From an uncultured Prevotellaceae bacterium (lineage in GTDB: Bacteria; Bacteroidota; Bacteroidia; Bacteroidales; Bacteroidaceae): a stretch of DNA of 64,000 nt. The position numbers were made by a program, and so were the translations under genes. Under the pieces are notes generated by a model. That model was not told the DNA's origin and did no database searches. It saw only the letters and a list, made by a program, of their open reading frames with translations. Shown piece after piece: positions 41,775 to 47,024 of the stretch. Each line of letters begins with the position of its first letter. The first letter of the stretch is position 1. The DNA is taken from the NCBI GenBank assembly GCA_900319225.1, contig ONNV01000004.1, forward strand, positions 115,971-179,970, in the 5' to 3' direction.

Positions 41775-42629
41775 TCAGGATAAATTATGCGCTATGCAGT
41801 TCTTGATGTATTCAATCAGTTCGGGATTATTCGTGGGATGCAGGTAGCTGGTACGGATTATGTCCAGTGCGGCGTAGGGGCGGAGCTCGCGGTTAAGTGC
41901 TTCAATATCAGTCGCTCCGGTATAAGCTTTTGCAAATGCGTTCCAGAAGTCAATCATCTGCTGCCGCGTCATGTGAGTCAGGTCCTGAACCTGAGGAATC
42001 ATGCTGTCCTCTATCAACATCTTGTAGTTATGGGCCAGATCCATCATATACCATCCCTGTGACAACCACCCCAGGTCTATCCAGAAGTGCTGTCCGCCGG
42101 CCATTATTATGTTGCCGGGCTGGAAATCGCCATGCAGGCAGTTCTGTGTATCCGGCATGGCATCCACTAAGACCGATAAGCGCTCACGTTGCTCATCGGT
42201 CACAATCGGAGATGACTGCAAGGCATTTTTAAGCAGCGTTTTCATGGGTATGACATACTCGTTCGGGGCAATGGGCGTATTGTGGAGCGCTTTTCCGTAC
42301 TCCGCCATCATTTGGGCGTATTCCGATATGCGGTCGGGGACGTCGGCACACAAGCGGGCAATTGATTTCTTGCCCTCAACTACCTGACACAGATATCCAT
42401 GATAATTGCCGTTGCGTACTATCTCGTAAACCTGCGGCGTAGGCAAGCCCGTCTCATAGGCCGTCTTGGCTGCATAGAATTCCTGCTCAACTTTCAGCGC
42501 ACTGCCCAAATCACTTGTAACCAGCTTAAGCATTACACCGGGGTGAGCATCGGACACAAACGCCTGTCCGTTAAAGCCTTCACCCACCTTTTTCCATTCA
42601 CTAAGTTCAATCTGCCGATAATCACTCAT
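41775..42629 (-). CDS. Aminoglycoside-phosphotransferase-like kinase
   Basis: 284 residues from the ATG at 42627-42629 (MSDYRQIELSEWKKVGEGFNGQAFV). Eukaryotic-like kinase fold: glycine loop VGEGFNGQAF, VAIK-like Lys in VMLKLV near 45, the catalytic block CLHGDFQPGNIIM near 190 and the metal-binding IDLGWLSQG near 208. This matches a paralogous APH-like family common in Bacteroidales and Fibrobacter (TIGR02172 type). The substrate is unknown; antibiotic resistance should not be assumed. A paralogue is at 58205-59065 and a remnant at 57818-57967. Confidence 0.85.
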   Translation of the reverse strand: MSDYRQIELSEWKKVGEGFNGQAFVSDAHPGVMLKLVTSDLGSALKVEQEFYAAKTAYETGLPTPQVYEIVRNGNYHGYLCQVVEGKKSIARLCADVPDRISEYAQMMAEYGKALHNTPIAPNEYVIPMKTLLKNALQSSPIVTDEQRERLSVLVDAMPDTQNCLHGDFQPGNIIMAGGQHFWIDLGWLSQGWYMMDLAHNYKMLIEDSMIPQVQDLTHMTRQQMIDFWNAFAKAYTGATDIEALNRELRPYAALDIIRTSYLHPTNNPELIEYIKNCIAHNLS

Positions 42630-42745
42630 AGCCCTAAACATCAGTGTCCTTTGCAAATATAAACAATTAGAGCCTGTTAATTGGATCAAGTATCAAGTAA
42701 AAGTTGTATTATTGCAATATCTAATCACTAAAAGAAATACGCAAA

Positions 42746-42910
42746 ATGGGCACATCTACACAGAAACAATACACTATAGAGGAGATACGAGCTCGTATTG
42801 ATCAGGCTGAGCGCGAATCAGCTTTAGGTCTTGGAATAGACGGCGAAGAGATGATTCGTGAATTGGAAGCCGAATTTGCTAAAGAAGATATCAAATCAAA
42901 TCTAAACTAA
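42746..42910 (+). CDS. 54-residue acidic protein, possibly antitoxin-like
   Basis: The ORF starts MGTSTQKQYTIEEIRARID and has RELEAEFAKED near the end; it is predicted to be helical and acidic. Small Bacteroidetes proteins of this kind often precede a RelE/ParE-type toxin gene, but no toxin ORF follows here; instead the convergent ORF6N gene begins, and the first palindrome copy starts 4 bases after the stop codon. Either a solitary small protein or the orphan half of a lost module. Function unassigned. Confidence 0.6.
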   Translation: MGTSTQKQYTIEEIRARIDQAERESALGLGIDGEEMIRELEAEFAKEDIKSNLN

Positions 42911-42913
42911 TAA

Positions 42914-42930
42914 GGTCACAATTTGTGATC
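42914..42930. promoter_or_regulatory. ORF6N-associated palindrome, copy 1
   Basis: GGTCACAATTTGTGATC, 5 bases beyond the ORF6N stop codon. Confidence 0.7.
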
Positions 42931-42935
42931 GCATA

Positions 42936-43559
42936 TTATTTGAAGCCGATGGGCGGACGCGGGTTGTTCTTCTTTTCCTCGATACGTGAAGCAAGTTCTC
43001 CGATTGCCAAATAGAGATTGTCTATGTCTTTGCGGACATCCTCTGACAGATCATTGACGGCAGCCAGATTCTCCTCTTGTTGGAGTTGAAGTAAATCAAC
43101 CTTTGCTCTGAGTTCCTTCAGTTCTGCCGATAGAGTAGAGGTGGTCATCAGGTATTCCCTGACTTGTACAAAGGCTCGCATTATTGCGATGTTTGCAGCG
43201 ATTGCAACATCACTTTTTAGAACTGATGATAGCATTGCAACTCCTTGTTCGGTAAAGGCAAAAGGAGCGTATTTGGGGTATTTGCCACGTCCTTTTTCTA
43301 AGGTCACAAATTGTGACCTTATATTGAGTATCAATGAGTTATACTCAGAATCGGAGAGCGTGAACATAAAATCAGGCGGAAATCTTTCAATGTTTCGTCT
43401 AACAGCTTGTTTCAAAACTTTGGTTTCAATTTGATACAATTTCGCCAAATCAAAATCCAGCATAACTCTCTTGCCACGAATCTCATAGATAAGATTTTGG
43501 ACTACTGTAATAGGATTATTATCCATATTACTCTCTAATTCTTTGTTTTTAGTTGTCAT
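42936..43559 (-). CDS. ORF6N-domain DNA-binding protein
   Basis: 207 residues. The ORF6N domain at about 18-105 is clear: LIYEIRGKRVMLDFDLAKLYQIETKVLKQAVRRNIERFPPDFMFTLSDSE and APFAFTEQGVAMLSSVL. The rest is a coiled coil (about 135-190) and a tail RPPIGFK typical of the chromosomal Bacteroidetes members. ORF6N is a DNA-binding domain first seen in phages (KilA-N related). Start could be the second Met (MDNNPITV, 43526). The gene contains one perfect GGTCACAAATTGTGACC palindrome inside its coding region (codons for SQFVTL) and three others surround it, suggesting that the protein binds them. Confidence 0.88.
   Translation of the reverse strand: MTTKNKELESNMDNNPITVVQNLIYEIRGKRVMLDFDLAKLYQIETKVLKQAVRRNIERFPPDFMFTLSDSEYNSLILNIRSQFVTLEKGRGKYPKYAPFAFTEQGVAMLSSVLKSDVAIAANIAIMRAFVQVREYLMTTSTLSAELKELRAKVDLLQLQQEENLAAVNDLSEDVRKDIDNLYLAIGELASRIEEKKNNPRPPIGFK
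43300..43320. promoter_or_regulatory. ORF6N-associated palindrome, copy 2 (intragenic, perfect)
   Basis: A 21-bp perfect palindrome (10-base arms, one central base) centred on GGTCACAAATTGTGACC, inside the ORF6N coding region. Confidence 0.75.
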
Positions 43560-43662
43560 AAAACAAACAAGTATAATTAGGTTAACATGATATCAAACAA
43601 CAAAGGGCACCCCAACCTGACACCTCTATGTCTTGCGGAACACCCTCTGGTATCAGATACTG

Positions 43663-43693
43663 CAAATATAGCAAAATGTGGAAGCGATACAAA
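43663..43693 (-). promoter_or_regulatory. ORF6N gene promoter
   Basis: On the minus strand TTTG (43690-43693), 19 bases, TATATTTG (43663-43670). The leader would be about 100 bases. Palindrome copy 3 begins 16 bases upstream of the -33. Confidence 0.65.
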
Positions 43694-43709
43694 ACAGAAC
43701 CATCTTTTC

Positions 43710-43730
43710 AAGGTCACATATTGTGATCTT
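43710..43730. promoter_or_regulatory. ORF6N-associated palindrome, copy 3 (promoter-proximal)
   Basis: GGTCACATATTGTGATC with extended arms (TTCAAG / CTTGAA), directly upstream of the ORF6N promoter. Confidence 0.7.
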
Positions 43731-43800
43731 GAAGATGTCAACGATTAGCGATTATTAAGGATATCCTCAAAAATGTGGCGCAGAAGTACTTTTGGTGCAT

Positions 43801-43821
43801 GCGGTCACAAATTGTGATCGC
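43801..43821. promoter_or_regulatory. ORF6N-associated palindrome, copy 4
   Basis: GGTCACAAATTGTGATC with complementary extensions ATGC / GCAT, 9 bases beyond the stop codon of the helicase-nuclease gene. Confidence 0.7.
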
Positions 43822-43830
43822 ATAAGCAAT

Positions 43831-46800
43831 TCAGAACGTTCCGTTCTTCTCCATCTCATCCAGCAGAGACAACTGCGTATTAGCCAAATCTTTTGAACTC
43901 AAGATGATTTCACGGAGCTGCTCATAAGACTTGACGAAAGTGTTGGGTATCATCAGGAAGGTGATGTTCTTTTTGTCGCAGATTTCTGATTTGCGTTTGT
44001 CGGCAGCCTCGCGGGCTTTGTTGCCAAAATGTTCTCCGCCGTTTATCTCAATCACAATTTTTGGGATAGGAGTGCGTGAGAACCACCTCTTTTCATACAG
44101 CACGCAGTCAAACTCGTATTGGAGTTGACTTAGTTCATTGTCATCGGCAAAGATTGTGCTGAATGGTACATTTCTCTTTGCTTCAAATGTCTGGTGGACA
44201 GAGCAGAACTGTGAAATGGTTTTGTAGAACTCTTTTTCGTAGTAACTGTTGTTGGATTTACCTAATTCAACTTTCAGCTCCTCATTAAGTGGCACTTCCG
44301 TTTTTCCTTGACTCTTTACATATTGGACAAGGTCAACAAGATCGCTATGCTCGCCTTTGGCCAACTTGGACAATACTTCTTCATCGCATGCCAAAACGAG
44401 TTTCTTCTTTGCTCTTGTAACAGCAACATTAATTAGTTCAGTGTTGTTCTTTATCCATTCAAAAGTTTTGTCTCTTGTGGTGGTAGATAGGGCTGTTGAC
44501 AGAATAATCGTGTCGCTTTCACCACCTTGCATAGCATGAACGGTTTCACAAGTTATGCCTTCTATGTTTGCCTCCTTAAGCCGTTCATTGATTAACTCGC
44601 GTTGATTTGCAAAAGGCGTTATGATTTTGGTGTTGGTATATCCGTTTCTCTTCAGGTAGTCGATAATGGCATCAACTTCTTCCCAGGCTTGATTCTTAAC
44701 AACACTGTTCACGTTCTTGACGTTCATCAGTATCAGTTCACCATTTTCTTTAATGGGAGTCAAGTCCAGTTTTGATTCGTAGTACTTTTTGTTTGAGAAG
44801 TTGATGATGCTTCGGCCGCATCTATAGTGGTATTTCAGTAATACGTACTGGGAAATGGAGTCGTGATTACGCATTACGTCAAGAATGGAATTTCTCTTGT
44901 AATCGTAATCCTGAGGAATGGAATGCTTTTCGCGGAGCATCATATTAATTGAATCCTCAATCACCACTATGGGTCGTAGTTGTTCGGGGTCACCAACCAG
45001 TAATAATGAATTGGCTTTGGTTACAGGAATTAACGCGTGTGATACGTTGCACTGCCCGGCTTCATCCATCACTACCAGGTCAAACATGCAATCTGGTGTG
45101 CCCAGTCTTTGGGCCGATATGTTAGTCGTAAATATGACAGGGAAGACCTTTGTGAAACGTTTCATGTTTTCATCAATGGCCATCCAATCGTTGAATGAAC
45201 GTATCCTGATATCCTTGTCCTCAATCTCGCATATGGCACGTAAATCATTGTATGAGGACTTTTGCAGAAGCCTTATGTGCTTTAGAGATGTAAAGTACAT
45301 CCATTGAATCAGTTGGGGATCCTTCTGTAATGGAGTGAACAGTTTCAAAACCTCCTCATTCTTGACTTCAGGATTCTTGACTAATTCTGTTTCCAGTTCC
45401 TGAATGTGTATGGATATGTTTTTTGAGAACTGGTTGTTGATGCCCATTGCATTTACATTTTTCTGCAACTGAACGGCATCCTTATAGAAACTTTCCAGTT
45501 TTACATGTTTCTCCTGTCGTTTAAGAATCTCACAAAGTTGTCCGTTCTTAGTATTTGTGGACGATTTGATGCGATCAATCTTCTCGTCATTGGGCTCATA
45601 ATTTGATGTGTATGAGAATAACTCTTTGATTTTATCCAGAGCCTTGTCAACTTGGTCCATATTGCCCAGTCTTAAGAACGGGAATGGGATGGGCTTATTC
45701 CAGTATTCTATCTGGAGCTTTTCCAGAATACCGTCAACGGGCTTGTTGTTCGATGAACAGACAATCATAGTCCTGTCGTTGTAGAAACCATTGAGGACTA
45801 CATTCAAGATCGTTTGTGTCTTTCCTGTTCCTGGAGGGCCTTGTACATATGTGACAGGTTGCTTCATTGCGTTGTAAAGCACTCGTGTCTGATCCACATT
45901 TATCTTTTCATCGCAAATGATGATATTGGGCTCCTTGCGGCGTTGGTTGTCGCGTCCGGTTATCATTCCAAAGAATGACTTAAGAGGAACATTCAACTTG
46001 CCGTTATCGTATCTGTCCAGGATCGCGTCAAATGTCGTCCTTACATCAACGGGCATATCACGCTCTATTATCATCATGTTCGGCATAGTGTCAATTATCT
46101 CGCCGAACCTGAGATTATCCTGTATTACCTCCATACCCCAAGCCGGGTTCTCTTTGTATTGCTCTATGAATTTGTCTACATCCATATCGGTGTATTGGAG
46201 CAAAGTAGCCCTGGCTTCACTTGACATTGTGCTGATTTCAGTCAGCTTCTTAAACAAGAAAGTCTTGTTAAAGCGTAGGGTCTTGTCCAAATTTAAGACA
46301 CCTTCTTTGGGGTTGTAATAGACGTTGTTGTAGGAGACAATATATATCCTGTTGTTGCTTGTCTTGCTTATTGCCAATCTGGAAATGGCAAACTCATAGA
46401 AAAGTGATGGCTTGTCGTTCCTGGCGTATCCTTTGTATAACTTGGTGAGGAGCGTTTTTTGCTCAGTACTAAGTGCGAAGGATTTGTCTTTGAGCAGAAC
46501 ATTATAATCGATGCCCGGAATGGTAATGTGTTCCTTTTGATATGGATCTTTATCGAACCAGTTGCATTCTTCATAGTAATCAAGCAAATAGCTGATATCT
46601 TGTTCATACTTCAGCCATTCGTATCTGTTCATGTTCTGCTCCAGTTTGTTTAAGAGCTTATCAGGAACATCATATTCAGTGAAATCAAGAATCTTTGCTG
46701 TCAGAATCTTGTTGAAGTAAAGCTTGGTCTGTTTTGCTTCGTCAACATTCTTGTCCGGATTGTACATTGATACGGAAAGTCGTATTTCCGGGCCGAGCTC

Positions 46801-46920
46801 TACGTCTTCGACCGAAATCCAGAAATATGTCTTGGCTTCTCCGTTACTCGCATAGGTGATATATACCCACTTTCCAGTGCGTATAGCTTTTACTAATACC
46901 TTTCCTATGCTCTCTTTCAT
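43831..46920 (-). CDS. SF1 helicase fused to a restriction-endonuclease-like domain
   Basis: 1029 residues from the ATG at 46918-46920. The central part is a UvrD/DNA2-like SF1 helicase: Walker A YVQGPPGTGKTQTILN near 360, Walker B DLVVMDEAGQCNVSHAL near 620, GDPEQLRPIV, the late motifs HAMQGGESDTIILSTALS near 800 and INVAVTRAKKKLVLA near 850. The C-terminal about 130 residues resemble a DUF559/DUF2726-type nuclease (KIVIEINGGEHFGNKAREAADKRKSEICDKKNITFLMIP). The N-terminal 330 residues are unassigned. Helicase-nuclease fusions of this type are often found in defence islands; here the only accessory neighbour is the ORF6N gene, so a defence role is inference. A minus-strand -7 (TAAGTTTG, 47025-47032) lies about 105 bases upstream. 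Confidence 0.85.
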   Translation of the reverse strand: MKESIGKVLVKAIRTGKWVYITYASNGEAKTYFWISVEDVELGPEIRLSVSMYNPDKNVDEAKQTKLYFNKILTAKILDFTEYDVPDKLLNKLEQNMNRYEWLKYEQDISYLLDYYEECNWFDKDPYQKEHITIPGIDYNVLLKDKSFALSTEQKTLLTKLYKGYARNDKPSLFYEFAISRLAISKTSNNRIYIVSYNNVYYNPKEGVLNLDKTLRFNKTFLFKKLTEISTMSSEARATLLQYTDMDVDKFIEQYKENPAWGMEVIQDNLRFGEIIDTMPNMMIIERDMPVDVRTTFDAILDRYDNGKLNVPLKSFFGMITGRDNQRRKEPNIIICDEKINVDQTRVLYNAMKQPVTYVQGPPGTGKTQTILNVVLNGFYNDRTMIVCSSNNKPVDGILEKLQIEYWNKPIPFPFLRLGNMDQVDKALDKIKELFSYTSNYEPNDEKIDRIKSSTNTKNGQLCEILKRQEKHVKLESFYKDAVQLQKNVNAMGINNQFSKNISIHIQELETELVKNPEVKNEEVLKLFTPLQKDPQLIQWMYFTSLKHIRLLQKSSYNDLRAICEIEDKDIRIRSFNDWMAIDENMKRFTKVFPVIFTTNISAQRLGTPDCMFDLVVMDEAGQCNVSHALIPVTKANSLLLVGDPEQLRPIVVIEDSINMMLREKHSIPQDYDYKRNSILDVMRNHDSISQYVLLKYHYRCGRSIINFSNKKYYESKLDLTPIKENGELILMNVKNVNSVVKNQAWEEVDAIIDYLKRNGYTNTKIITPFANQRELINERLKEANIEGITCETVHAMQGGESDTIILSTALSTTTRDKTFEWIKNNTELINVAVTRAKKKLVLACDEEVLSKLAKGEHSDLVDLVQYVKSQGKTEVPLNEELKVELGKSNNSYYEKEFYKTISQFCSVHQTFEAKRNVPFSTIFADDNELSQLQYEFDCVLYEKRWFSRTPIPKIVIEINGGEHFGNKAREAADKRKSEICDKKNITFLMIPNTFVKSYEQLREIILSSKDLANTQLSLLDEMEKNGTF

Positions 46921-47024
46921 CAATTGGCTTGACCTTAATATGGGATCAATGGTCGTAATCCCGTTTCCAGGCCATTATTATGAATACATATCAAAACCTC
47001 ATATAGAGGAATGTATTTCTGCTG

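What the first reader, a model, noticed from the sequence alone, without database searches (positions are those of the whole stretch)
42914..43821. ORF6N gene bracketed and pierced by four copies of one palindrome
GGTCACAAATTGTGACC-type palindromes lie after the stop codon, inside the coding region (a perfect 21-bp copy), just upstream of the promoter, and next to the adjacent gene end. The variable arm ends (AAG/CTT or GCG/CGC) again covary. I did not notice this palindrome elsewhere in the window. The protein probably binds them, giving autoregulation or a looped, silenced or mobile unit. ORF6N proteins in chromosomes have no known target site as far as I know.
Basis: partly seen in the sequence, partly recalled or inferred. 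Interest (0 to 1): 0.75.

Follow-up and report, generated by a model that had tools for sequence, protein, structure and literature searches.

The report
DNA palindrome embedded inside ORF6N-type genes
A family of mobile bacterial and phage genes carries, at one fixed spot inside its protein-coding sequence, a DNA palindrome that is kept symmetrical even when this forces changes in the protein, which suggests that these genes contain their own binding site.

Summary
The four palindromes are real (8 strand matches, 0.25 expected). In the 2.5-Mb genome all five copies with two mismatches or fewer lie at its two ORF6N loci.

The internal palindrome is a rule. At one codon position it beats codon resampling (p<0.05) in 134 of 140 ORF6N copies, 29 of 32 from plasmids and another class and 32 of 35 from viral contigs. 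Arms differ, but both sides change together and amino acids follow. Ser codon 61 is TCA with Val64 (72/72), TCG with Ala64 or Ser64 (21/21). It occurs in two reading frames. Mismatches show no G·U preference, so symmetry is kept in duplex DNA.

Bro-N (15/18), RhuM (24/31) and DUF1016/YhcG (28/32) genes do the same. In whole-gene tests KilA-N does not (2/24 at p<0.05), nor do ordinary genes (strict criterion 1/360, this ORF6N).

Flanking copies are the exception; P4 here is probably a relic of another ORF6N gene.

Best reading: a portable intragenic operator bound by a dimer, probably the gene's own product. Binding is inferred, not shown.

The parts
42936..43559 (-). ORF6N gene, 207 aa
   Evidence: PF10543 E 5.7e-33; ORF
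43299..43321 (.). P2, internal 23-bp perfect odd palindrome, codons 80-87 (I)RSQFVTL; centre is the first base of the Phe84 codon
   Evidence: L012: score 11, 0 of 300 resamplings reach it; the only one of 360 background genes with score >=10 and p<=0.02
42911..42937 (.). P1, palindrome just beyond the stops of the small + ORF and of ORF6N; hybrid arms AAGG / CGC
   Evidence: a near-identical element lies downstream of ORF6N in G128 (L348)
43709..43735 (.). P3, palindrome about 150 bp upstream of the ORF6N start codon
   Evidence: part of 43693-43818, conserved at 94% in G143 (L343)
43770..43826 (-). P4 palindrome (43799-43823) plus about 30 bp, probable remnant of another ORF6N gene (reads RSQIVTACTKSTSAPHF, then a stop)
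   Evidence: 57 bp at 82% identity to the coding region of L058 (E 2.7e-11, palindrome included); the profile alone is weak (iE 0.41)
43540..43678 (-). ORF6N 5' region with promoter-like TATATTTGC (Bacteroidetes -7 consensus, recalled), conserved in the genus
   Evidence: 81-88% identity over 82-144 bp in 6 of 20 fetched loci, 3 of them beside ORF6N coding matches (more rows); no Rfam match
42746..42910 (+). small 54-aa ORF; at the G129 locus its homologue is followed by an ORF that reads like a RelE/ParE toxin, with no ORF6N gene there
   Evidence: read; alignment; toxin name is by eye, not from a domain search
43831..46923 (-). neighbouring helicase gene (AAA_11/AAA_12; DUF2726 below cut-off)

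Best explanation
ORF6N genes carry a dyad-symmetric duplex-DNA site inside their own coding sequence, at the codons for HMM positions 57-69 (RSQ[IF]VTS, or VANCD in the other frame). It is selected at the DNA level (shown). In the window protein the encoded residues overlap a loop of low predicted confidence (shown), so amino acids can probably follow the palindrome. The likeliest job is a portable operator: a dimer binds it, probably the gene's own product or a close sister, and lowers transcription of the gene by road-block (inferred). Neighbours of these genes are diverse. An operator inside the coding region would let the control travel with the gene wherever it lands. Bro-N, RhuM and DUF1016/YhcG genes have the same arrangement (shown). 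Stand-alone copies between genes, several in loci that look like restriction-modification or toxin-antitoxin loci, would be further sites of the same kind (inferred).
For: Palindrome beats codon resampling with the protein fixed: 134/140, 29/32, 32/35. In a whole-gene test it is the gene's best palindrome, p<0.05, in 23 of 23 ORF6N genes (score >=10 in 15), against score >=10 in 0 and p<0.05 in 2 of 24 KilA-N genes. In 464 kb of own genome 1 of 360 genes has score >=10 and p<=0.02, this ORF6N (3 of 360 at p<=0.02 alone). Both sides change together, amino acids too (RSQFVT, RCQFGT, RTQIAS, RSQFGS, KSKFST, VSQIVIP, NSSQIVMT). Ser61 wobble base follows residue 64 in 93 of 93. Two reading frames, 118 and 12 of 130. 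No G-U preference: 16 G-T against 23 A-C mismatches. Invariant centre (A-T at pair 2 in 118/118) with variable arms, as expected for a protein site. Residues 84-92 are the only segment of three or more with pLDDT <50. Same arrangement in RhuM, DUF1016 and Bro-N. Diverse neighbours: no Pfam family in more than 4 of 59 upstream or 2 of 55 downstream. An upstream copy with the arms of the internal one in L153/L016, L236 and RhuM of L163.
Against: No binding data. Own core not enriched upstream (p 0.62). Core sequence follows the C-terminal half of the domain (r 0.44) more than the helix-turn-helix half (r 0.29; partial 0.06). Paralogues in one genome are no more different in core than genes of different genomes (5.83 against 5.79 of 19 bases), so there is no sign of insulation. 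Stand-alone palindromes occur in G018, G072 and G076, where one search found no ORF6N gene. Foldseek gave no PDB match with E <=0.001, so a DNA-binding fold is not confirmed. Some genes lack a palindrome beyond chance: 12 of 207 ORF6N tests, 7 of 31 RhuM, 4 of 32 DUF1016, 3 of 18 Bro-N. On the strict whole-gene criterion the Bro-N loci gave only 2 of 91 genes (8 at p<=0.02).
Confidence: 0.5

Rival explanations
1. The palindrome is a site for recombination or for movement of the gene: breaks, deletions or integration happen at it, flanking copies are scars, and the gene halves can be exchanged.
For: Relative to the same locus in G129, which has no ORF6N gene there, the unaligned window DNA is 42896-43827, with P1 (from 42911) and P4 (to 43823) near its ends. 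In G128 the ORF6N gene is deleted from within about 10 bp of the right edge of its palindrome, and in G143 an ORF6N relic ends at that edge. P1 has hybrid arms. Some ORF6N genes lie next to integrases: 3 of 59 upstream neighbours match Phage_integrase; L238 and L239 directly, L232 behind a recombinase gene.
Against: The site is symmetrical through its centre, unlike recombinase core sites (recalled). Fragment ends are only mildly clustered: 10 of 16 N-only ends at HMM 55-72, 3 of 11 C-only starts at 53-72. N and C parts of the domain still correlate (r 0.57). Palindromes are fragile DNA, so breaks there may be a side effect.
Confidence: 0.15
2. The site is bound by a third party (another KilA/Bro-type regulator, a host factor or a defence protein) that silences or senses incoming genes of these families.
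For: Stand-alone palindromes of the ORF6N kind lie in genomes without a PF10543 match (G018, G072, G076), and several lie in loci that look like restriction-modification or toxin-antitoxin loci (gene names mostly by eye). Core does not track the ORF6N helix-turn-helix half.
Against: A gene under silencing pressure should lose the site, but it is kept in 195 of 207 tests. The families have different centres.
Confidence: 0.15
3. Self-recognition by a toxic or nucleolytic protein: the gene's own DNA site acts as antidote, copy sensor or self mark, so that loss of the gene or arrival of a different allele is punished.
For: DUF1016/YhcG has a PDDEXK nuclease domain (L152 protein); pneumococcal Bro is described as a toxin (PMC4257102, passages); RhuM is proposed to be a toxin of R-M loci (PMC3710099, passages). 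Cores diversify while symmetry stays.
Against: No activity data for ORF6N. No excess core divergence between paralogues of a genome.
Confidence: 0.1
4. An mRNA hairpin in the coding region (processing, attenuation or translation control).
For: Perfect inverted repeats form strong hairpins; some stand-alone copies look like terminators (A and T tracts, L152, L154, L168).
Against: G-U is not tolerated above A-C (16 against 23). Pair 4 is A-T 73, G-C 26, C-G 18 and G-T 1. Thr65 opposite AGG/CGG is ACC in 57 and ACT in 1.
Confidence: 0.07
5. Coincidence of a conserved protein motif and codon usage.
For: RSQ[IF]VTS is common among the proteins.
Against: Codon resampling with the protein fixed; two reading frames; variable motif with paired changes.
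Confidence: 0.02

Closest known systems
Lambda O protein and ori-lambda (iterons inside the O gene)
   [quoted passage not shown] passages read).
   Different: One palindrome in the window gene, not four repeats. No replication role is known. The site is kept symmetrical with paired amino-acid changes across several gene families.
Rickettsia palindromic elements in protein-coding genes
   Same: Palindromic DNA read as protein.
   [quoted passage not shown] Here it is about 20-30 bp, at one fixed codon position, at only two loci of the own genome.
Coding palindromes of Nematomorpha mitochondria
   Same: Compromise between inverted repeat and protein (PMC6649704, abstract and section list seen).
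   Different: Those are up to 284 bp in mitochondrial genes, not in a DNA-binding family.
Autorepression through a palindromic operator (e.g. phd-doc)
   Same: Dyad operator of the own product, postulated for the pneumococcal pair (PMC4257102, passages).
   Different: That operator is at the promoter; here it lies inside the coding region.
parS inside parB/spo0J
   Same: Palindromic site of a DNA-binding protein within its own gene (recalled, no call).
   Different: parS is nearly invariant and acts in chromosome partition (recalled); here the arms vary freely.

Membership tests
ORF6N domain protein (PF10543) | Pfam match above cut-off | tested here: met
   113.5 bits against 27.8
Lambda-O type initiator with intragenic origin | several repeats in the gene | tested here: not met
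   one internal site in the window gene; some DUF1016 genes have several (L151, L219, L220)
Lambda-O type initiator with intragenic origin | own product binds the internal site | not testable with these tools
   needs gel shift or DAP-seq
Promoter-proximal autorepressor operator | copy of the site at the own promoter | tested here: not met
   not a rule: 10 of 122 genes have an upstream palindrome, 7 ORF6N-like by eye; own core not enriched. The window gene has P3 about 150 bp upstream of its start
Dispersed palindromic repeat (REP, MITE, RPE) | many copies spread over the genome | tested here: not met
   two loci in 2.5 Mb
Structured RNA element | G-U pairs tolerated on the coding strand | tested here: not met
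   16 G-T against 23 A-C
Structured RNA element | match to a described RNA family | tested here: not met
   no Rfam match up to E 1 in 42600-44000
Site-specific recombination site | rearrangement boundaries at the site | tested here: inconclusive
   three suggestive loci, weak statistics
Restriction-linked accessory gene | neighbouring R-M genes | tested here: not met
   not a rule: 4 of 59 upstream neighbours N6_Mtase, 2 of 55 downstream Methylase_S; the window neighbour scanned is a helicase

The most novel reading that the evidence does not exclude
A general class of self-recognising genes: several families of mobile, phage- and defence-associated genes carry in their own reading frame the DNA site that their product reads. 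The product uses it as a self mark (copy sensor, antidote or licence), so that site and protein diversify together and each allele knows itself from others. Part of what looks like a conserved protein motif in these families is then a DNA site read as protein.
Probability: 0.15. Interest if true: 0.95.

Novelty: new variant of a known kind. Interest (0 to 1): 0.82.

Why it matters
ORF6N, Bro-N, RhuM and DUF1016/YhcG genes are common in the genomes searched (45 of 119, 28 of 60, 25 of 41 and 28 of 41) and poorly characterised. The embedded palindrome gives each gene a concrete candidate target that can be tested at once and links four families otherwise filed apart. It is also a rare case where a DNA site shapes the protein motif of a whole family, so conservation there should not be read as protein function alone.

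Searches that could have found a description; some searches were for precedents. All are in open PMC papers only, and mostly only listings were seen. mostly returned unrelated words beginning with 'rhum', so it is weak. None showed this palindrome.

Tried and rejected
RNA hairpin: disfavoured by mismatch types. Protein-motif coincidence: rejected by codon resampling and two frames. Dispersed repeat: rejected by the genome count. Own-core operator upstream as a rule: not found. Insulation between paralogues: not found. Site tracking the helix-turn-helix half: not found. Breakpoints at the palindrome: suggestive loci but weak statistics. Fold search: no significant PDB match. Sequence searches of PDB: nothing convincing for ORF6N, one DUF1016 and one RhuM protein. 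Rfam: nothing. PADLOC scan of the 59 upstream neighbours: type I methyltransferase models in up to 4, mad2 in 5; downstream neighbours were not scanned with it. Named phages: 3 and 5 unannotated records matched; their DNA was not examined. The KilA-N part stopped with a script error and was replaced by the whole-gene test.

Counts and drops. One search tested 140 of 168 domain hits; hits without HMM positions 50 and 62, with N, or too near a sequence end were left out, the truncated second copy of the own genome among them. Searches used 130 genes with palindrome score >=6 after removing duplicates, so their pair statistics exclude genes without a palindrome; one search used 102 of these. One search was given 24 of the 29 ORF6N loci L014-L042 (L020, L021, L035, L038 and L041 left out; L041 fails) and tested 23 (L036 had no open frame there), and 24 of 30 KilA-N loci (the others are partial hits). 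One search tested 32 of 34 DUF1016 genes. Searches skipped 2 and 1 fragments. L360-L362 repeat L078, L079, L081; L075 and L076 are one sequence; the three ORF6N tallies are therefore not fully independent.

Full report
1. Observation. The internal copy P2 is a perfect 23-bp odd palindrome (43299-43321). It is read as (I)RSQFVTL, codons 80-87 of a 207-aa ORF6N protein (PF10543, E 5.7e-33). P1 has unlike arms; from the letters, P4 has one mismatched pair and P3 two. In the whole genome (17 contigs, 2.53 Mb) all hits with two mismatches or fewer lie at this locus or at C9:226787. The latter is beside the only other PF10543 match, a truncated copy with its own internal variant GGTCGCAAAATGCGACC.

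2. The internal palindrome is a rule. ORF6N genes were collected from 119 genomes of the order (45 with a match) and from 40 loci of genome contigs, with more DNA. A profile built from them placed the site at HMM positions 57-69. For 140 copies the best palindrome there was compared with 300 codon-resampled versions of the same protein: p<0.05 in 134, p<0.01 in 124, none of 300 in 95. By record title the set includes Elusimicrobia, a Nitrospira, Termititenax and Duganella. Ten plasmid loci, loci of three genomes reached by handle and of Duganella's class (12 of 185 genomes with a match) gave 29 of 32. Viral contigs gave 32 of 35. In a whole-gene test the site was the gene's best palindrome, at p<0.05, in 23 of 23 ORF6N genes. 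The best palindrome reached score 10 in 0 of 24 KilA-N genes and p<0.05 in 2 of 24. In 464 kb of the own genome, one gene of 360 combined score >=10 with p<=0.02: the ORF6N gene of this finding; two others had p<=0.02 with lower scores.

3. The symmetry is kept in DNA. Among 118 frame-1 genes, pair 2 is A-T in 118, pair 3 is paired in 118 and pair 4 in 117, while the letters of pairs 4-12 vary. The third base of a TCN codon for Ser61 follows residue 64 in 93 of 93 genes (TCA with Val 72, TCG with Ala 16, TCG with Ser 5). Amino acids change in pairs: RSQFVTS, RCQFGTS, RTQIASS, RSQFGSS, KSKFSTS, VSQIVIP, NSSQIVMT. A second group reads the same kind of palindrome in another frame, two bases away (VANCD; 12 of 130 genes). 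Mismatches inside the arms are G·T 16 and A·C 23, so coding-strand RNA pairing is not favoured. These pair counts are on genes selected for having a palindrome.

4. Other families. Stand-alone hits led to loci where I read type I R-M and toxin-antitoxin genes by eye. Pfam confirmed there RhuM (L150, L163), DUF1016_N (L151, L152; YhcG nuclease domain in L152), integrases (L146, L152) and DUF6364 (L155). RhuM and DUF1016 carry internal palindromes of their own at fixed positions: 24 of 31 and 28 of 32. Bro-N genes do so in 15 of 18, again in two frames (ELVTNCNQLKM and AKGWVQFVPTLW). On the strict whole-gene criterion only 2 of the 91 genes of the Bro-N loci pass, and 8 at p<=0.02. Centres are family-specific by eye: AAnTT in most ORF6N, Bro-N and RhuM genes, CAsTG in many DUF1016 genes; arms vary freely.

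5. Where it lies in the protein. An AlphaFold2 model from 32 sequences (pLDDT 79.9) has one segment of three or more residues below 50, residues 84-92. The palindrome-encoded residues 81-87 end the helix 70-81 and enter that segment, before the strand 100-103. The protein can thus probably accept what the palindrome dictates. Foldseek found no PDB match with E <=0.001.

6. Copies outside genes. A pattern search of the same 119 genomes gave 94 strand hits against 3 for the reversed control, in 36 genomes. Of these 36, 29 carry ORF6N (45 of 119 overall) and 7 do not. Palindromes of score 8 or more with no PF10543 match in the genome occur in G018, G072 and G076. Thirteen stand-alone sites share 24-40 bp at 90-100% identity with ORF6N genes. 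Outside the palindrome, 6 of 13 show no flank match at E<=0.05; in 4 the flank match is a neighbouring palindrome; 3 have weak flank matches (L154, L160, L166). L160 lies beside an ORF6N fragment, and L163 has a weak profile match (iE 0.0022), so these two may be relics. Upstream palindromes of ORF6N genes are a minority (10 of 122; 6 of 126 in the matching downstream bin), and upstream DNA does not match the own gene better than others. Individual cases do match: L016/L153, Butyrivibrio L236, and RhuM of L163.

7. The window copies. P4 and about 30 bp beside it read like a piece of another ORF6N gene (RSQIVTACTKSTSAPHF and a stop) and align with L058 over 57 bp at 82%, palindrome included. 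The profile score alone is weak. At the G129 locus the place between the small ORF and the helicase holds a RelE/ParE-like ORF (named by eye), with no ORF6N gene and no such palindrome. The window DNA that does not align there is 42896-43827, with P1 and P4 near its two ends. In G128 an ORF6N gene is cut within about 10 bp of the right edge of its palindrome, and in G143 a relic ends at that edge. This suggests that palindromes are weak points or sites of rearrangement. Statistics on fragments are only mildly in favour.

8. Mechanism. Shown: a dyad site in duplex DNA, fixed position, paired change, several families. Inferred: a dimeric protein binds it; the binder is the gene's own product or a sister; binding lowers transcription. 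Nearest neighbours of ORF6N genes are diverse (59 upstream, 55 downstream; no Pfam family in more than 4 or 2 of them). An operator inside the gene would be a control that always travels with it. Against this: no upstream partner site as a rule, no tracking of the helix-turn-helix half, no insulation between paralogues, palindromes in genomes without ORF6N, and no binding data.

9. What is known. Lambda O binds iterons inside its own gene (PMC3985674, passages), the closest precedent in working. Rickettsia palindromic elements and Nematomorpha coding palindromes are palindromes read as protein, but longer and of another kind (PMC4316617 passages; PMC6649704 abstract). RhuM is proposed, and pneumococcal Bro described, as a toxin (PMC3710099, PMC4257102, passages). 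Passages of PMC6591296 and PMC8263062 were also seen; they mention ORF6N or Bro-N genes but no such palindrome. No paper on this palindrome was found in the searches listed under Why it matters; the library holds open PMC papers only.

Noticed in passing
window 43540-43678: The 5' region of the ORF6N gene is conserved at 81-88% in 6 of 20 fetched loci of the genus and has no Rfam match; it may be a regulatory leader.
   Followed up: partly
L340 950-1670 (G129): The homologous locus of a related genome has the small ORF followed by a RelE/ParE-like ORF (by eye) where the window has ORF6N.
   Followed up: partly
L151 2697-2866: A DUF1016_N gene with four palindromes in tandem, about 50 bp apart, of two or more different sequences.
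   Followed up: no
L161 2220-2324: Three different ORF6N-type palindromes in a row (by eye) in what reads like a type I R-M locus; a similar row precedes DUF1016 in L152.
   Followed up: partly
L230 and L231: Segatella copri plasmids of 2955 and 4140 bases whose only genes in the PLSDB table (which is incomplete) are a replication protein and ORF6N.
   Followed up: no
L051 3517-3537 and L071 2426-2446: The same other palindrome CGTTGAAAAACTTTTTCAACG lies upstream of ORF6N genes in two different records.
   Followed up: no
L011 1212-1265, 2313-2341; L246 near 19930: GGGGACTGTCCCC / GGGGACAGTCCCC palindromes recur at other places of the same genome, once inside an ORF.
   Followed up: no
L018, L015 and L205: Tandem ORF6N (L018, L015) or DUF1016 (L205) genes whose internal palindromes differ from each other.
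   Followed up: no
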